From Candidatus Mucispirillum faecigallinarum (GTDB lineage: Bacteria > Chrysiogenota > Deferribacteres > Deferribacterales > Mucispirillaceae): 39,376 nucleotides of DNA. This document shows positions 13,556 to 37,567 of the stretch, one piece after another. The stretch spans positions 1 through 39,376 of the forward strand of contig DXAQ01000004.1 in assembly GCA_019116905.1 (NCBI GenBank). Reading direction: 5' to 3'. Position 1 is the first letter of the stretch. Every line of letters starts with the position of its first letter. A model generated the notes under the pieces. The model saw only the letters and a program-made list of their open reading frames with translations, made no database searches and was not told the origin of the DNA. The position numbers were made by a program, and so were the translations under genes.

Positions 13556-16129
13556 TTATATATTATCTTTATTTTCTCTATTTTTATTAATAAATTCAGA
13601 AAGAACTGCATAAAGCATATTAACATTTACAGGCTTCGCAAGATGTGCATTCATTCCTGCTGCATTTGATTCTGCAATATCTTCTTCAAATATATTAGCA
13701 CTTAATGCAATAATAGGGATAGATAAAGCATCCTTCCTGTTAGACTGGCGTATAAGACGTGATGCATCAAGTCCGTCCATTACAGGCATTTGTATATCCA
13801 TTAATATGGCATCTATACTAAATGGCTCAGACTGTTTATACATATCTACTGCCTCCTCACCATTCCATGCCTGCAATACTTTTACTTTTTTTAGTGTCAA
13901 AAGCTCTACAAGGATTTGCATATTCACCACATTATCTTCAACAGCTAAAACAACAGCACCTGATAAATCAATATTTTCAATATTATTTTCTGCTTCTTCA
14001 TTATTACTTGATTCATCTGCCTTATTAAAAGGAAGTGTTATAGTAACAGTAGTGCCTATTCCATACTGGCTTTCGATGTTAATTTCACCATCCATTCTAT
14101 GAACCTGATTTTGTACAATGGAAAGCCCAAGCCCTGTGCCTGTTATGCCTAATGTTTCACTGCGTTTTTCTCTTGCAAATGGTGTATATATTTGGCTTAA
14201 AAATTCTTTACTCATACCAATGCCGCTGTCTGATACTATAAATTGATACCATAATTTATCAGATGATAGATGAATTTCTGTAACAGACATATTTATACTG
14301 CCGTTTTCTTTCGTATATTTAAAAGCGTTTGATAAGATATTATTTAAAATATGAACAAGTTTATTTAAATCACCCTGCACTTTATCATTTTTTATATTTA
14401 TTGATGCACTAAAGTTTTTATTATCTCTTTGAGCAATAAGTGTAAAAATATTAATTATTTCACCGATTTGGCTTTCTATGGAAAATGTTTCATTATTTGA
14501 TTCCATAGTTTTACTTTCAGATTTTGCCATTTCTAAGAAATTATCAATTAATGTTATAAGCTGCGAACCTGAAAGTTTGATTTTTTCAAGATAATCAGCT
14601 ATTTTTTCAGGATTATTTAAATGGTGTCCCATAAGTTCTGCAATACCTATTATTCCATTTAAAGGTGTACGCATATCGTGTGATACGCTTGAATAAAGTA
14701 TACGTTTAGATTCTGCACTTTCTTTTAAAGCGCTCACTGCATCTTCTAATAATCCAATATGAGCAAGTTCGCGTTTACGTTCTTCTTCACATTCTCTAAA
14801 ACATAAAAGAACGTATTCTTCAGAAACTGTTTTATCCATAATAAACCTAAGGTTTACCCATTTATAACCGTCTTCTAACATTCTGTGTAAATCAATAGAA
14901 TAATCAAGCTGGTTATTTTTTGCCATATTCCTAATATTTTCCATAGAAAAACTTGTTCTAAATTCATCGACTGATATATCATCAAGAGAATTAATCAAGG
15001 TATTATATAGCTCCTCATATTTTCCTTCCTGTTTTATCATGGAGCAGATAAAGTCTGTACCTCTAAGAATAACATATTCTTCTGTAATAATATTGACTCT
15101 GTATATTGCATAGTAGGAGTTACCAAGCATATCTATTACACTGTTAGAATCATATATTTTTTTATTAAGATAATTTTCTTCTGTATATATTACAACACCT
15201 GCAATAGATAAAATCATTAATATAATTAAATAACGCAGATGCCATATAGGAGAGGAGGAATAAAGCTTATTATTATTTATTAAAACTACTGATGTATATC
15301 CTGAATATATATTCTTTTTAAAAAATAAATTAAATATTTCATTGTTTCCTGTTACTAAAACTGATGAACCTAAACTGGAGTTATCACTTTTAATAATATT
15401 ATATATCTTTTTATACAGTTCATCATTTGTGCATGTTTTTAGTTCCGGAACATTTATAGCTGCAATATGAGTACCTTTATTATCAATAAGTATATATGTA
15501 TTATCATCAAAAATATCTTTTTGAGGCAGCCAGCTTTCTTCAATATTATCAATATATAAATCTAATGCTAAAACTCCTTTTCCATTAAGCAGGCTGATAG
15601 AAATTGTTATTACACTTTGATTATCAATTATATCATTATATACAGGTGTAAAAACAGGGTATGATTGAAATTTTAATGCAGTTTTATACCAGTAAGTTTC
15701 TTTTATATATTTTGATGAAAGTTTATCAATATTATAAGAAAAACTGCCAGCAAACCTGCCGTCATATTCATCGTTTCCAACTGCATAAGCTTTTATTTTG
15801 CCTATATGGGTAGCCTGCTCAACATAAGATACTAATTCTTTAAGCCATGCTGAAATTTCTTCATCATTTGCACCAGTTAAGGCAAGCAGTTCAACCTGCC
15901 TTGCACCCATTTCCAATGACATTTTATATGTATCTATTCTGTGAGAAATATGAGATGAAAATACATTTAATCTTAAGTTACCAAGTTCCTCAAGGTTTTG
16001 TTTGACTTTATTACTGGAAGATATAAGGCTGTATATAAATACAATTAATGATAAAAATAAGAAAATTAGTGTAAATATAACACTTCTATCAAAATGGTTA
16101 TTGTCTTTTTTTACTCTAGTAAAAGCCAT
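13556..16129 (-). CDS. Hybrid sensor histidine kinase (extracytoplasmic Cache-like sensor, HisKA, HATPase_c, receiver)
   Basis: Two TM segments; H-box 'SSVSHDMRTPLNGIIGI'; N-box 'NNILSNAFKYTKENG'; 'DSGIGMS', 'GTGLGLSIV'; receiver 'IDAILMDIQMPVMDGLDASR'. Confidence 0.92.
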   Translation of the reverse strand: MAFTRVKKDNNHFDRSVIFTLIFLFLSLIVFIYSLISSSNKVKQNLEELGNLRLNVFSSHISHRIDTYKMSLEMGARQVELLALTGANDEEISAWLKELVSYVEQATHIGKIKAYAVGNDEYDGRFAGSFSYNIDKLSSKYIKETYWYKTALKFQSYPVFTPVYNDIIDNQSVITISISLLNGKGVLALDLYIDNIEESWLPQKDIFDDNTYILIDNKGTHIAAINVPELKTCTNDELYKKIYNIIKSDNSSLGSSVLVTGNNEIFNLFFKKNIYSGYTSVVLINNNKLYSSSPIWHLRYLIILMILSIAGVVIYTEENYLNKKIYDSNSVIDMLGNSYYAIYRVNIITEEYVILRGTDFICSMIKQEGKYEELYNTLINSLDDISVDEFRTSFSMENIRNMAKNNQLDYSIDLHRMLEDGYKWVNLRFIMDKTVSEEYVLLCFRECEEERKRELAHIGLLEDAVSALKESAESKRILYSSVSHDMRTPLNGIIGIAELMGHHLNNPEKIADYLEKIKLSGSQLITLIDNFLEMAKSESKTMESNNETFSIESQIGEIINIFTLIAQRDNKNFSASINIKNDKVQGDLNKLVHILNNILSNAFKYTKENGSINMSVTEIHLSSDKLWYQFIVSDSGIGMSKEFLSQIYTPFAREKRSETLGITGTGLGLSIVQNQVHRMDGEINIESQYGIGTTVTITLPFNKADESSNNEEAENNIENIDLSGAVVLAVEDNVVNMQILVELLTLKKVKVLQAWNGEEAVDMYKQSEPFSIDAILMDIQMPVMDGLDASRLIRQSNRKDALSIPIIALSANIFEEDIAESNAAGMNAHLAKPVNVNMLYAVLSEFINKNRENKDNI

Positions 16130-17595: not shown

Positions 17596-20154
17596 TTAAA
17601 TATTTACTTTATTTTTAATAAGCTTAACAATTGTGCCATAAAGCTGAGGCAGATTAACAGGTTTTGCTAAATGCTCATTCATTCCAGCCTCCAGCGATGC
17701 TGCCACATCTTCTTCAAAAACATTAGCACTTAAAGCGATAATAGGCACAGTCTTTGCATCACTTCTATCAAGGTTTCTTATATCTTTTGCAGTTTCAAGT
17801 CCGTTAAGTACTGGCATTTGAATATCAATAATTAGTATATCAAATGTGCCTTCTTTTGAGTTTTTAAATGTGTTTACTGCTTCAAGCCCGTTAAATGTTT
17901 GTGTAACATTAATATTTTTAAGTTTTAAAAGCTCTGTTAATATCTGCATATTTACTACATTATCTTCTGCTACAAGCACATTAAGCCCAGATAAGCTTTC
18001 GTTATCTATATTATCATTTTTATTATCTACATCTTGGTTTAAAGTATTAGATTTCATAACTTCAAAAGGAAGTGTTATTATTACTTTTGTCCCTTTTTCA
18101 TACTGGCTTTCAATTTTAATATCGCCATTCATGTGTTTTACCTGACCATTAACAATAGAAAGCCCAAGCCCTGCACCTGTAATATTTTTTGTATCATTTC
18201 TATTTTCCCTGTTAAATGGTGTAAAAATAGTCTTTAAGAAATCTTCACTCATACCAATTCCATTATCTTCAATAATAAACTGAAATCGTGGTATGGAAGG
18301 CACAGTGTTTTCCTGCACAGTAAATTTTATTATGCCATTATCTTTTGTATATTTAAATGCATTTGATAATATATTGCTTAATATATGCATCAATGTATTG
18401 GCATCACCTTTAATATTTTTATGTGTTACATTAAAATCTACTATAAACTTTTTATTATCTCTTTCTGCAACAGTGTGGAAAAGGCTGCAGATTTCATTTA
18501 TTTTATTTTCAAGATTAAATTCAACAAGGCTGTAATCAAGCGCTTTACTTTCAGACTGGGCCATTTCTAAAAAGTTGCTGATTAATGTTAAAAGCTGTGA
18601 GCCTGAAATTTTAATCTTTTCAATATAATCAAGCAGTTTTTGCCTGTCATCAATATTTAAAGCCATTAATTCAGATATACCAATAATGCAGTTTAAAGGT
18701 GTGCGCATATCGTTGGAAACACTTGAATAAAGAATACGTTTTGCTGCTGCACTTTCTTTTAAAGCTTCCACCGCTTCTTCTAAAAGTTCAATATGGGCAA
18801 GTTCCTGTTCCCTTTCAATGCCACATTCCTTAAAACAAAGCAGTATATTTTCTTTTGATATTGCTTTATTTCTAATAATTCTTATATTTATCCATTTATT
18901 TTCACCGTTATCAATTTTATGGAAATATTTATCCATATTAAAGCTGCTGCTTTTTGACATTGATTTTAACCTTTCCAGTGAAAATGTATCTATAAATTCT
19001 TCTTTAGATGCTTCATCAAGAGTATCAACATATTTCTTAAAAAAATCTTCATACATTCCATTAGGGCGTATTCTGCATACGCTGCCTGTACTTCTTACAA
19101 TGCTGTATGTATTATTTTCAAGATTAACCCTGTATATGCAGTAATAAATATATCCAAGCATATCAACAGTGCTGTCAGAATCATCTGCACGTTTTTTTAG
19201 ATAATAACCATCAATGTATGAAATAGTTACTGCAAAAGCAAGCATAATGAAAATAATAATATATTTTGAATACTCATCTTCAATAGCAGAATGCATAACG
19301 TTATCATCTATAACTGTTATGGAATAATATTTAGTCCGTGGGTTTTGTCTATAAAATATAGAATACTTGTTGCCATTAACATACTCCATTTTAAAAAAGC
19401 CATATCTATTATGGGATTCTAAAATATTTTGTTTTATGCCGCTTAAAAATTCACTGTATTCATTAATTGATTTATTATCTTTTGAGTAAAAGGCAATCAT
19501 TTCACCTTTATCATCTATTAAGAAATTCATTTTCGTATCAAGAGTATGCTGATTAAAAAATTTATTTGTGCCAAGTGTATCAGTATGTAAATCAATTGCT
19601 AACACACCTTTATTATCAGGCAGGCTTATTGAGGCAGTAGCCACATACCTTTTAGTAATCATATCCTGATACACTTCTGAAAATACAGGCGTTCCTGGAT
19701 TCTTTATGGCATTTGTATACCATACTCTGTTTTTATAATTATTTTTTTCCCCTGTTTCTAAAATATCGCCATACTCTCTATCTACAAACATATTATCATT
19801 AGCAAAATAAACATTAATATCCTGCAGAAATAATGTTCTCCTTAAATGTTCATAATAAGTATTAAGCCATTTTATATAATCATCTTTTGTGGCGTTATTT
19901 GCAATGTATGTAATAAGTTCATCTGATGCAGTCTGTAATGAATATGAATAAAGCTGAGAAAGAAATGTTGTTTTTGTATAAAGCAGTTCAAGTGTATTTA
20001 TTCCTACATTTTCAATCCTTTGATTGATTTTTTCCTGATATGCAACGCGACTGAATGTAAAAATAATACCTGTAATAGCAATAAAAACAGCAAAAAAGAT
20101 TAATGCTCTGTATGAACTTGTAAAGCGTAATCTGTTTATTTTTTCCTTTCCCAT
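17596..20154 (-). CDS. Hybrid sensor histidine kinase paralogue lacking the phosphoacceptor His (pseudo-HisKA), with HATPase_c and receiver
   Basis: Same architecture as 13556-16129; H-box reads 'SSVSNDMRTPLNCIIGI'; N/G boxes and receiver Asp retained. Confidence 0.92.
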   Translation of the reverse strand: MGKEKINRLRFTSSYRALIFFAVFIAITGIIFTFSRVAYQEKINQRIENVGINTLELLYTKTTFLSQLYSYSLQTASDELITYIANNATKDDYIKWLNTYYEHLRRTLFLQDINVYFANDNMFVDREYGDILETGEKNNYKNRVWYTNAIKNPGTPVFSEVYQDMITKRYVATASISLPDNKGVLAIDLHTDTLGTNKFFNQHTLDTKMNFLIDDKGEMIAFYSKDNKSINEYSEFLSGIKQNILESHNRYGFFKMEYVNGNKYSIFYRQNPRTKYYSITVIDDNVMHSAIEDEYSKYIIIFIMLAFAVTISYIDGYYLKKRADDSDSTVDMLGYIYYCIYRVNLENNTYSIVRSTGSVCRIRPNGMYEDFFKKYVDTLDEASKEEFIDTFSLERLKSMSKSSSFNMDKYFHKIDNGENKWINIRIIRNKAISKENILLCFKECGIEREQELAHIELLEEAVEALKESAAAKRILYSSVSNDMRTPLNCIIGISELMALNIDDRQKLLDYIEKIKISGSQLLTLISNFLEMAQSESKALDYSLVEFNLENKINEICSLFHTVAERDNKKFIVDFNVTHKNIKGDANTLMHILSNILSNAFKYTKDNGIIKFTVQENTVPSIPRFQFIIEDNGIGMSEDFLKTIFTPFNRENRNDTKNITGAGLGLSIVNGQVKHMNGDIKIESQYEKGTKVIITLPFEVMKSNTLNQDVDNKNDNIDNESLSGLNVLVAEDNVVNMQILTELLKLKNINVTQTFNGLEAVNTFKNSKEGTFDILIIDIQMPVLNGLETAKDIRNLDRSDAKTVPIIALSANVFEEDVAASLEAGMNEHLAKPVNLPQLYGTIVKLIKNKVNI

Positions 20155-33543: not shown

Positions 33544-33642
33544 TGTTTAGGGTATTGTAGCGTTTCTATAAATAAATAATAATTGCTATTAAATTTATTT
33601 TATGATATTTTTAACAGGTAATTTCTATATAAAGGTTATAAA

Positions 33643-34641
33643 ATGAATTATATTGGTTCAAAATATTCTTTAATGAATTTTTTAATAAAAAGTATAAGTT
33701 CAGTTATTAATAAAAAATCAAATATGATATTTGCAGATTTATTTGCAGGAACAGGTGTAGTTGGTGCAGAATATCGTTCTATGGGTTTTAATGTGATATC
33801 CAATGATATACAATATTATAGTTATGTTTTAAATAAACACTATATAACTAATAATGCAACTATAAGTTCCCAGTTAATAGATTATTTGAATAACTTAAAA
33901 GGTGTGGAAGGATTTGTATATAATAATTATTGTGCTGGTTCAGGTAGTGGAAGAAACTATTTTAGTGATGAAAATGGTAAGAAGTGTGATGCAATAAGAT
34001 TAGAGTTAAATTATTTATTTAGTAGAAATGAAATTGATGAATCATCATATTATACACTTTTAGCAAGTTTATTAAATTCTGTTGATAAGGTGGCTAATAC
34101 AGCATCTGTTTATGGTGCATTTTTAAAACATATTAAGCTATCTGCACAAAAACCATTGTTATTGGAATTATTACCCCAAATTAATGGTTTAATAGGTAGA
34201 GTATATAATATGAATATAAATGAGTTAATATCACATATTGATGGTGATATATTGTATTTAGACCCACCATACAATACACGCCAATATAGTGCTAATTACC
34301 ATGTATTGGAAACAATTGCAAGATATGATTATCCAGAATTATTTGGTAAAAGTGGTCTAAGAGATTATTCTACACAAAAAAGTGCATATTGTTCTAAACG
34401 TACAGTTGAAGAAGTGTTTGATGATTTAGTTAAAAGAGCAAAATTTAAGTATATATTTGTAAGTTACAATAATGAAGGATTAATGAGTTTAGATGTTATA
34501 AAAAATATTATGAAAAAATATGGTAAATATACCTGTTTTACTCAAGAATATAAACGTTTTAAAGCAGATAAAGATATAAATAGAAATATTTCATCATCAA
34601 AAACCATAGAATATTTACATTTATTAGAAAAGGTTTCATAG
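33643..34641 (+). CDS. Adenine-specific DNA methyltransferase, D12 class (R-M component M1)
   Basis: 'MNYIGSKYSLMNFL', 'FADLFAGTGVVGAEYR', 'ILYLDPPYNTRQYSANYHVLETIARYD'. Confidence 0.9.
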   Translation: MNYIGSKYSLMNFLIKSISSVINKKSNMIFADLFAGTGVVGAEYRSMGFNVISNDIQYYSYVLNKHYITNNATISSQLIDYLNNLKGVEGFVYNNYCAGSGSGRNYFSDENGKKCDAIRLELNYLFSRNEIDESSYYTLLASLLNSVDKVANTASVYGAFLKHIKLSAQKPLLLELLPQINGLIGRVYNMNINELISHIDGDILYLDPPYNTRQYSANYHVLETIARYDYPELFGKSGLRDYSTQKSAYCSKRTVEEVFDDLVKRAKFKYIFVSYNNEGLMSLDVIKNIMKKYGKYTCFTQEYKRFKADKDINRNISSSKTIEYLHLLEKVS

Positions 34642-35429
34642 TGGCAAAATATAATGATATTAATATGAAATTATGGCATAATTATAATGATATTTCTACA
34701 GATTCATTGTGGATTATTGATAAGCGTGATAATAGTGGAATACATAGTGGTCATTATCATGGTAATTTTATTCCACAAATTCCATATCAACTTTTTAGTA
34801 GATATACTAAAAAAGGGGATTGGATTCTTGATCCTTTCATGGGTAGTGGTACATCAATTATTGAAGCAATAAATATGGAAAGAAATGCTATTGGTATAGA
34901 ATTACAACAAAATGTTGCTCAAGAAGTTTCTGATAGATTAGGTAATATAAAAATAAATGATACAAAGTATTTAATTTTTCAAGGTGATAGTGGTATTTTA
35001 GATATTAATCGGCAGTTACAAAACCATAATATAAATAAGGTTCAGTTTATAATTTATCATCCACCTTATTGGGATATTATAAAGTTTTCAAATGATAAAC
35101 AGGACTTGTCAAATGCAGATACATTGCAAAATTTTTTATATAAATTTGGTAAAACAATAGATAATACATCAAAATTACTTGAAAAAAATAGATATTGTGC
35201 ACTAGTTATTGGTGATAAGTATGCAAATAGTCAGATTATTCCTCTTGGTTTTTACTGTATGAATCTTTTTATGGAGAGAAATTTTTTAATGAAAGCAATA
35301 ATTGTTAAAAATTTTGATGAAACTAAAGGAAAAAATGGTACAAAAGCAATATGGAGATATAGAGCGTTAGCGAGTGATTTTTATATATTTAAACATGAAT
35401 ATATATTTGTATTTAAAAAATTAGGTTAA
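34641..35429 (+). CDS. DNA methyltransferase, N4/N6 amino type (R-M component M2)
   Basis: 'GDWILDPFMGSGTSIIEAINMERNAIGIEL' (SAM motif) and 'FIIYHPPYWDIIKFSND' (catalytic xPPYW); start overlaps M1 stop. Confidence 0.88.
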   Translation: MAKYNDINMKLWHNYNDISTDSLWIIDKRDNSGIHSGHYHGNFIPQIPYQLFSRYTKKGDWILDPFMGSGTSIIEAINMERNAIGIELQQNVAQEVSDRLGNIKINDTKYLIFQGDSGILDINRQLQNHNINKVQFIIYHPPYWDIIKFSNDKQDLSNADTLQNFLYKFGKTIDNTSKLLEKNRYCALVIGDKYANSQIIPLGFYCMNLFMERNFLMKAIIVKNFDETKGKNGTKAIWRYRALASDFYIFKHEYIFVFKKLG

Positions 35430-36563
35430 TTCATTAAAAAGAATATTATCATTATCTTTATGTACACTAATATATTTTTCTTTTGATACTTTTATTTTTT
35501 CTTTATTACTTGATTCATATTTTATTTTTTTATTTGTTAATAAAGTGTTATTACCAAATGGAGCAATTATTATAGGATTTATTATTATAGTTTTATCATG
35601 GTATAGTGGACATATATAATCTTTTATCCATTTGATATATTTTTCTAATTGATTAAATGCGTTTTCATTTGGAGTAATGCATTTAAGCTCAATAACATTA
35701 ATGTATAAAGTATTATCTAAAAATTGCATTATTAATATGTCTATTTTTTGCATGCCTACGCCACAGCCTACTTCGTTACCTATCCAAAAAGAATCATTTG
35801 GATTTGGTATAATTAATTGTCTTAAGTTATTATTTATATCAATATTTTGTAAAATATATGCTTGTAAATGAGTTTCATATGCTTGATTATTTTCTATTTT
35901 AAAAAGCAATCTTTCTTTAATATCAAGAATAGGCTGAGGATCTTCTTGATACATAGTGTTAGATTGATTAATAGCGATACAATTTTTCTTTATGTCATAA
36001 TAGAATCTATCAGACACATTAGTAAGTGTTATGGGATTATTATTTTCATTTGCATTTTTTATCAACCTTTTTAATCGTTGTGCTTCATAATCAGTTATCA
36101 TTGTACAGCCACGATTACCGCGCAGTTTTCTATATATTAGACTCCAACACATTTCACTAGGATGTTTTATATCTTCTAAACAATCTAATGCTGCATATTC
36201 TGATATACCTTTTGGGTAGACTTCATCTTGTTCTATGAATACTCTATACTGTAATTCTTTATTTAGTTCATTATTTAAATATCCATTTTTACAATAAAAA
36301 GGATTGTTTTTTACTTTAAAAATGCCAAAAATTGTTCCAGAATGACTATTATCTCCTTGTAAATAAAATAATATTTTATCATTAATTTTTACTCTGCTTA
36401 TATCAGCAATTAATCCAAGTAAATTGCGTTCTCTACTGTGATGTATATTGTTACATTTTGGGTTAAGTAGAAAGTCTGGATTATTAGCTGTGCCTGTAGC
36501 AGCAAACATATATTTTAAATGAATATCAAATGTTGTATTGTTAACAATAAATACATGTGTCAT
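35421..36563 (-). CDS. Putative restriction nuclease: PUA/EVE-like N-terminal domain plus NucS-like PD-(D/E)xK C-terminal domain
   Basis: ATG at 36563 (GTG at 36575 possible); 'GMQKIDILIMQFLDNTLYINVIELKC...QLEKYIKWI' is a D...ExK...Q nuclease core; N-terminus resembles PUA-like modified-base/substrate binding folds. Confidence 0.65.
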   Translation of the reverse strand: MTHVFIVNNTTFDIHLKYMFAATGTANNPDFLLNPKCNNIHHSRERNLLGLIADISRVKINDKILFYLQGDNSHSGTIFGIFKVKNNPFYCKNGYLNNELNKELQYRVFIEQDEVYPKGISEYAALDCLEDIKHPSEMCWSLIYRKLRGNRGCTMITDYEAQRLKRLIKNANENNNPITLTNVSDRFYYDIKKNCIAINQSNTMYQEDPQPILDIKERLLFKIENNQAYETHLQAYILQNIDINNNLRQLIIPNPNDSFWIGNEVGCGVGMQKIDILIMQFLDNTLYINVIELKCITPNENAFNQLEKYIKWIKDYICPLYHDKTIIINPIIIAPFGNNTLLTNKKIKYESSNKEKIKVSKEKYISVHKDNDNILFNELT

Positions 36564-36564
36564 T

Positions 36565-37159
36565 TTAGTTACCACTTAAATGCTTTCTAAATTCTATTGG
36601 ATCATACCAAAAGCAACCAACACATTTGTTTGTAGTATCATATTGCAATGTTCCCTGATAAAAAGAAATTGGGTATCCAAGTTGTTTAGCATCATATCGT
36701 AGACCTGATTGGATACATTCTTTGCAAAATTGCCTTTTTGCATCGTTAGCGGCTTTGCTTAATGGTTGAAAATCATATAATTGCTGATTTTTATTTAACA
36801 TTACTCTATCGTCGTTTTTACGACCATCTTTATGGTCAACTTCTGGATTAGATGTTCCTAGGACAACGCATCTTTGTTTTTTTTATTGATTTTTTAATAT
36901 CAGCTCTAATATGTTGTGAATAATTATTGTTATTAAATCCATTTAATCTAATGGCATCTATACCATTACCGCTTGTTAATGTTTTAGTAAATTCTACAAT
37001 ATATTGTTTAGCAATTGATGATTCTTTTCTACACCAAGATCCACCATTCCCAAGTTGTAGTGCTTTATATTTTCCTACAAACTCATTTACATTTACCCAT
37101 CTACTAATACCATTACTATCTGGTTTAGCTAATTCTAAAAATAAATCTTTTTTAGTCAT
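36565..37159 (-). pseudogene. HNH/beta-beta-alpha-Me type II restriction endonuclease, reading frame split at a poly-A tract (possibly phase variable)
   Basis: ORFs 36848-37192 and 36565-36801 become one ~197-aa frame if one A of the A8 tract (36877-36884, minus strand) is removed; joined frame reads ...KKQRCVVLGTSNPEVDHKDGRKNDDRVMLNKNQQLYDFQPLSKAANDAKRQFCKEC...CVGCFWYDP. Confidence 0.8.
36877..36884. repeat. Homopolymer T8 (A8 on coding strand) inside the HNH nuclease gene
   Basis: tctttgTTTTTTTTattg in the given sequence. Confidence 0.95.
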
Positions 37160-37373
37160 TATTTTTAACATCCTTAAGTAATAAATATGCATCTATCTGT
37201 AGTGCATTAGCAATTTTTTCAATATTTTCAATTGAAACATTACGCCTTCCACATTCAATATCACTAATATATGTTCTGTGTAGATTAGAAATTTCCGCTA
37301 ATTTTTCTTGTGATAATTTTCTTATTTGTCTAAATTTTTTTACATTAAAACTAAATATTTTTAATAAACTCAT
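37152..37373 (-). CDS. XRE-family HTH regulator, R-M controller (C protein)-like
   Basis: 73 aa; 'LSQEKLAEISNLHRTYISDIECGRRNVSIENIEKIANAL'; overlaps the start of the nuclease gene. Confidence 0.85.
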   Translation of the reverse strand: MSLLKIFSFNVKKFRQIRKLSQEKLAEISNLHRTYISDIECGRRNVSIENIEKIANALQIDAYLLLKDVKNND

Positions 37374-37400
37374 ATTATCCTCACTAAAAATATATTATAA

Positions 37401-37432
37401 ATACATAAAATGTCCACAGACTATAAGTGTCA
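37401..37432 (-). promoter_or_regulatory. Putative C-box operator upstream of the controller gene
   Basis: Minus strand TGACACTTATAGTCTGTGGACATTTTATGTAT; resembles C-protein operators containing ACTTATAGTCCGTG; TATAAT at 37394-37399 lies just downstream. Confidence 0.6.
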
Positions 37433-37567
37433 TTAGCATAAGTAAGTATTATTTTTTCATTTACAAACATGTAAAAGTGTGGTATAAGCTTTTTTCTCTT
37501 GACGATTATTATTATATTTATTATAATCGGCAGCAAATGTTTATGATTATATAAGAAACGAGTTATT

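What the first reader, a model, noticed from the sequence alone, without database searches (positions are those of the whole stretch)
36565..37192. HNH restriction endonuclease split by a frameshift exactly at an A8 homopolymer: candidate phase-variable restriction
Seen directly: ORFs 36848-37192 and 36565-36801 (minus) are the two halves of one protein. The first half runs ...DIKKSIKKTKMRCPRNI*. Removing a single A from the AAAAAAAA tract (36877-36884) makes the frame continue as IKKQRCVVLGTSNPEVDHKDGRKNDDRVMLNKNQQLYDFQPLSKAANDAKRQFCKEC...CVGCFWYDPIEFRKHLSGN*. That downstream part carries the whole HNH/beta-beta-alpha-Me signature (DH...N...C-x2-C...C-x2-C). From MTKK (37159) to the stop is 595 nt; minus one it equals 198 codons. 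The second half is otherwise intact, which argues against an old pseudogene. Established: homopolymer slippage switches R-M genes ON/OFF in several host-associated bacteria. Inference: this copy is the OFF state. Transcriptional slippage or an assembly homopolymer error are the alternatives.
Basis: partly seen in the sequence, partly recalled or inferred. Interest (0 to 1): 0.8.

Follow-up and report, generated by a model that had tools for sequence, protein, structure and literature searches.

The report
Frameshifted IceA restriction enzyme gene
In this gut bacterium (genus Mucispirillum) the gene for a DNA-cutting defence enzyme of the IceA/NlaIII kind is switched off by one extra A in a run of eight; close relatives have seven and an intact gene, so it looks like a recent, possibly reversible, but fairly ordinary loss rather than a proven on/off switch.

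Summary
On the minus strand, an ICEA-family (PF05315, NlaIII/HpyI-type HNH) endonuclease gene, 37159-36565, is split at A8 (36884-36877). Two other Mucispirillum MAGs carry the same locus with A7 and an intact 197-codon gene. Of about 30 orthologues compared over 27.5 kb, iceA alone is frameshifted. The part beyond the break is still under purifying selection (dN/dS about 0.16), so the break is recent. The gene belongs to a roughly 3.9-kb R-M island: C protein with C-box, iceA, an EVE+NucS-like nuclease and two methyltransferases. Relative G009 has the empty site. The interpretation "phase-variable" is only partly supported. A8 lies below the poly-A cut-off (>=10) used for contingency loci in Campylobacter. 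The tract is not conserved outside the genus, and A7 there is what AT-rich codon use gives by chance (37%). No second allele of this species could be seen. IceA is broken in 12 of 25 Helicobacteraceae carriers at scattered sites, as in most H. pylori iceA1 genes. Best reading: a recent slippage null of the nuclease with methyltransferases kept. It could revert, but no evolved switch is shown. Assembly error and transcriptional-slippage rescue remain open.

The parts
36565..37159 (-). iceA, split ICEA/NlaIII-type HNH restriction endonuclease gene (595 nt; 197-codon gene in relatives)
   Evidence: PF05315 hits to both halves; intact orthologues L022, L005
36877..36884 (-). A8 tract (T8 on +); A7 in both Mucispirillum relatives; site of the frameshift
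36848..37159 (-). first frame as it stands: 103-aa truncated product without any HNH/zinc residue
   Evidence: invariant residues
36565..36882 (-). out-of-frame C part: DH, N and two C-x2-C pairs, all invariant family residues kept
37152..37373 (-). C (controller) protein gene, overlapping iceA start by 8 nt
   Evidence: PADLOC Control_protein 2.8e-22; PDB C.BclI 4.3e-13, C.AhdI, C.Esp1396I class
37405..37433 (-). C-box-like operator TGACACTTATAGTCTGTGGAC upstream of the C gene (one mismatch to GACTTATAGTC over the core), identical in L022 and L005
   Evidence: consensus from PMC3115060
35421..36563 (-). R2: EVE/YTH-like N domain plus NucS-like PD-(D/E)XK C domain (GCGVGMQKIDI...IELK); ATG 1 nt after the iceA stop
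34641..35429 (+). M2: beta-class N6/N4 DNA methyltransferase, intact
   Evidence: PF01555 1.9e-19; PADLOC MTase_II 5e-103
33643..34641 (+). M1: D12-class N6-adenine methyltransferase, intact (class of M.NlaIII/M.HpyI by own knowledge)
   Evidence: PF02086 3e-46; PADLOC MTase_II 4e-106
33544..37450 (.). R-M island between a TrmN-like gene and yceD-rpmF-plsX; absent in relative G009 (L044), where TrmN and yceD are neighbours

Best explanation
The locus is a C-protein-regulated type II R-M island whose IceA/NlaIII-type endonuclease has been knocked out recently by a one-base expansion (A7 to A8) of an A run during replication. The cell makes a 103-residue fragment without the catalytic HNH centre, so it does not cut at the IceA site, while both methyltransferases are kept and the DNA stays modified. 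Shown: the split, the A7 intact relatives, recency, the intact partners. Inferred: loss of cutting, continued methylation, and that the A8 can slip back at a low rate (a leaky null rather than a dedicated switch). Losing the nuclease while keeping the methylase is the safe order of decay and is what most H. pylori iceA1 genes show.
For: A7 and an open frame in L022 and L005, A8 and a stop in the window. iceA is the only frameshifted gene of about 30 orthologues and the only one in a wider sample of 68 ORF comparisons, 66 kb, two of which are iceA itself. The seven other A8/T8 runs in window genes lie in open frames. dN/dS is 0.16 for the C part against 0.11 (L022) and 0.19 (L005) for the N part, and M1 and M2 are at 0.07-0.11. 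IceA is broken in 12 of 25 Helicobacteraceae and 3 of 12 Campylobacteraceae carriers, at different sites with runs of at most 6. Most H. pylori iceA1 genes carry frameshifts (PMC13340068).
Against: One assembly of the species and no reads, so a consensus error at A8 or a mixed population cannot be excluded. Purifying selection on the C part would also fit a gene that is regularly ON.
Confidence: 0.58

Rival explanations
1. True phase variation: the A-run toggles A7 (ON) and A8 (OFF) often enough that populations are mixed; the methylases stay on, so switching the nuclease is safe.
For: Break exactly in the longest run of the gene; ON allele in sister species; C part under purifying selection.
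Against: A8 is below the >=10 A/T cut-off used for Campylobacter contingency loci (PMC6321876). The tract is not kept in other IceA genes. A7 is expected in 37% of synonymous versions and some run >=7 in 81%. No second allele was seen within the species.
Confidence: 0.17
2. Assembly or base-calling error: the true tract is A7 and iceA is intact.
For: Draft MAG-like genome of 168 contigs; homopolymers are the usual place of indel errors.
Against: No other frameshift in about 30 orthologues or in the wider sample, and seven other A8/T8 runs in genes are in frame.
Confidence: 0.14
3. Transcriptional slippage on A8 makes a share of A7 (or A10) messages, so some full-length IceA is made from the A8 gene, as for poly-A frameshifts in Buchnera and Blochmannia.
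For: A and T runs slip in bacterial transcription, and frameshifted endosymbiont genes are rescued this way (PMC3017870; PMC5009743). The C part is well conserved.
Against: Documented slippage sites are mostly runs of 9 or more. Ribosomal -1 shifting, the kind an A AAA AAA heptamer favours, leads to a stop after NKDALS, so only +1 or -2 restores the frame.
Confidence: 0.11

Closest known systems
Helicobacter pylori iceA1 / hpyIM (HpyI, NlaIII-like CATG R-M)
   Same: Same Pfam family (ICEA), next to a methyltransferase gene, nuclease gene commonly frameshifted while the methylase is kept (PMC13340068)
   Different: Here in Mucispirillum, with a C gene, a second methyltransferase and an EVE+NucS-like nuclease in the island; break at A8, whereas the Helicobacteraceae breaks inspected are at shorter runs or none
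NlaIII R-M system (Neisseria lactamica)
   Same: IceA1-type HNH endonuclease with a D12-type adenine methylase (NlaIII relation via PMC13340068)
   Different: CATG specificity not tested here; extra genes in the island
Phase-variable R-M genes (e.g. Campylobacter poly-G type IIG, Mycoplasma agalactiae poly-G/GA methylases)
   Same: Frame change by repeat length (PMC6321876, PMC9465063)
   Different: Those have longer or G/C tracts, shown length variation, and often hit the methylase; here A8, one allele seen, nuclease only
C-protein-controlled R-M systems (Esp1396I, PvuII, AhdI, BclI)
   Same: C gene just upstream of R, C-box core CTTATAGTC-nGTG
   Different: Second operator half is weak or degenerate in this sequence; regulation not tested

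Membership tests
ICEA (PF05315) endonuclease family | Profile match over the whole family model above cut-off | tested here: met
   Both halves above the 24-bit cut-off, 143 and 114 bits, covering 1-94 and 94-200 of 218
ICEA (PF05315) endonuclease family | Invariant HNH/zinc residues (DH, N, C-x2-C, C-x2-C) | tested here: met
   All present in the out-of-frame C part
ICEA (PF05315) endonuclease family | CATG recognition and cleavage | not testable with these tools
   Needs enzyme assay or methylome
Type II R-M system | Adjacent intact DNA methyltransferase | tested here: met
   M1 and M2 intact and under purifying selection
Type II R-M system | Intact cognate endonuclease in this genome | tested here: not met
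   iceA split; the only ICEA locus in the genome
C-protein-controlled R-M system | C-type HTH protein upstream of R with a C-box | tested here: met
   second half-site weak
Phase-variable (SSR contingency) locus | Repeat tract of accepted length in the gene (poly-A/T >=10 in the Campylobacter survey) | tested here: not met
   A8; cut-off in PMC6321876
Phase-variable (SSR contingency) locus | Different tract lengths within one species or clone | not testable with these tools
   One assembly of the species; between species A7 versus A8
Phase-variable (SSR contingency) locus | Tract more frequent or conserved than codon use predicts | tested here: not met
   37% chance of A7 at this place, 81% of some run >=7 in the gene; absent outside the genus

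The most novel reading that the evidence does not exclude
The A-run is a reversible switch that controls two nucleases at once: A8 stops translation of iceA 281 nt before its normal end, and the EVE+NucS-like R2, whose ATG lies 1 nt after the iceA stop, loses its coupled translation, while both methylases on the other strand stay on.
Probability: 0.1. Interest if true: 0.6.

Novelty: new member of a known kind. Interest (0 to 1): 0.3.

Why it matters
It extends the iceA1 pattern (nuclease repeatedly broken, methylase kept) from Helicobacter to a mucus-dwelling Deferribacterota genus and gives a recent case caught one base after the break. It makes testable whether gut bacteria turn type II restriction off reversibly by plain A-run slippage. 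If only a null, it is an ordinary R-M decay event.

Tried and rejected
Programmed -1 ribosomal frameshifting: rejected, the -1 frame stops after NKDALS. Separate translation of the C half: unlikely, since the first ATG of that frame (36801) lies past the DH motif and no ATG/GTG/TTG lies between the break and it. Old pseudogene: rejected by dN/dS and by all invariant residues being kept. Recurrent homopolymer hot spot in the family: tested on the split IceA loci, breaks scattered, runs of at most 6. Viral contigs and phage records: no IceA relative. Plasmids: one weak IceA relative. Structure of IceA: model too poor to use (pLDDT 65, pTM 0.43). Gracilibacteria locus L023 first looked broken but carries 14 in-frame TGA codons, which fits its TGA=Gly code (own knowledge).

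Full report
OBSERVATION. The window is contig C160 of a 2.31-Mb, 168-contig draft genome. Same-genus MAGs found through the gene are titled uncultured Mucispirillum. On the minus strand the gene starting MTKK at 37159 reads to a stop at 36848; one base on, the frame continues to 36565. The shift lies in an A8 run, 36884-36877. Both parts match one Pfam family, ICEA, in consecutive stretches of the profile.

IS THE OTHER ALLELE REAL? Two same-genus genomes (L022 = G006:C26, L005 = G003:C1) have the same gene in the same place, with A7 and one open frame of 197 codons. The other seven genus genomes searched lack IceA. All invariant family residues, including DH, N and the two C-x2-C pairs, lie after the break and are kept in the window. 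The truncated 103-residue product therefore has no catalytic centre.

IS IT AN ERROR OR OLD DECAY? Every reference ORF of the two relatives was compared with the window. Of about 30 orthologous genes over 27.5 kb only iceA changes frame. In a wider sample of this assembly against the genus genomes (68 ORF-place pairs, 66 kb) iceA is again the only frameshift; two short ORFs with internal stops also appear, one of which lies antisense to a longer gene. The seven other A8/T8 runs inside window genes lie in open frames. These results make a general homopolymer-error problem unlikely but cannot exclude one error. dN/dS between window and L022 is 0.11 for the part before the break and 0.16 for the part after it (dS about 0.7), against 0.07-0.11 for the methylases. 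The break is recent, or the gene is not always broken.

SURROUNDINGS. iceA overlaps by 8 nt the end of a 73-codon HTH gene, which is a controller protein: PADLOC Control_protein 2.8e-22; closest solved relatives C.BclI, C.AhdI and the Esp1396I class. Upstream lies TGACACTTATAGTCTGTGGAC, identical in window, L022 and L005 within a diverged spacer, matching the published operator form GACTtatAGTC with central GT (PMC3115060). Downstream, 1 nt after the iceA stop, starts R2, a 380-codon protein. Its model (pTM 0.80) matches EVE/YTH modified-base readers at the N end (PH1033, E=4e-7). Its C end carries a D...ExK motif and a weak NucS match. On the other strand are a beta-class methylase (M2) and a D12-class methylase (M1). 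In G009 the TrmN-like gene and yceD are direct neighbours, so the roughly 3.9-kb block is an island absent there. The trio M2-iceA-M1 recurs in most of the genome loci found, in Bacteroidales, Campylobacter, Cloacimonadota and others; R2 is present in some only.

WHAT IT MOST LIKELY IS. A recent loss of the nuclease by one-base growth of an A run, with the methylases kept. Three facts argue against an evolved switch. First, A8 is shorter than the poly-A/T length (>=10) used to call contingency loci in Campylobacter (PMC6321876). Second, in this genome's codon use A7 arises at IKKQ in 37% of random synonymous versions, and some run of 7 or more arises in 81%; other IceA genes have no such run there. 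Third, IceA is often broken: in 12 of 25 Helicobacteraceae genomes and 3 of 12 Campylobacteraceae genomes with a strong match the gene is split, interrupted or truncated (my count). The breaks inspected lie at different places with runs of at most 6. For H. pylori the literature says most iceA1 genes carry frameshifts (PMC13340068). Reversion through A8 remains possible in principle, so "OFF state" is fair but "phase-variable" is unproven.

RIVALS. Phase variation 0.17, assembly error 0.14, transcriptional-slippage rescue 0.11. Slippage rescue has precedents in endosymbionts (PMC3017870), mostly on longer runs. A -1 ribosomal shift at the run leads to a stop after NKDALS, so that route is closed.

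MEMBERSHIP. ICEA family: met by profile and residues; CATG cutting not testable. C-protein-controlled type II R-M: met by gene content; without an intact nuclease the system is at present a modification-only remnant for the IceA site, unless slippage or reversion supplies enzyme. SSR contingency locus: length and conservation tests not met, variation not testable.

Noticed in passing
L022:4700-8560 versus L005 (window 33544-37450): Between two Mucispirillum species the R-M island is almost identical (dS 0-0.05 for C, iceA C part, M1, M2) while flanking genes are at dS 0.2-0.4, so the island was exchanged recently between species.
   Followed up: partly
L005:5101-5220 (iceA residues about 33-72): In L005 a patch of iceA differs strongly from L022 (37 of 100 nt) inside the otherwise identical island and departs from residues common in the family (LQLGNGGSWCRK becomes LVFGNGASWCRS): a mosaic allele, possibly altered DNA contacts.
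   Followed up: partly
window 35421-36563; L022/L005:5596-6735: R2, an EVE/YTH-like reader domain fused to a NucS-like nuclease domain, sits in some IceA islands and evolves fast (dN/dS 0.34 window-L022, 0.71 L022-L005), with changes clustered at residues 26-43. A modification-reading nuclease inside a methylating R-M island is unusual.
   Followed up: partly
L007-L020, L024: Two methylases (M2 beta class and M1 D12 class) flank iceA even where R2 is absent, so both may belong to the IceA system.
   Followed up: no
L057/L070 and L058/L069: Two Campylobacteraceae genomes carry a partial second copy of the iceA 5' part directly upstream of the intact gene.
   Followed up: no
window 13556-16129 and 17596-20154: Two long hybrid sensor kinase / response regulator genes with PDC-like sensor domains lie close together, one gene apart, and share similarity (cross-matches).
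   Followed up: no
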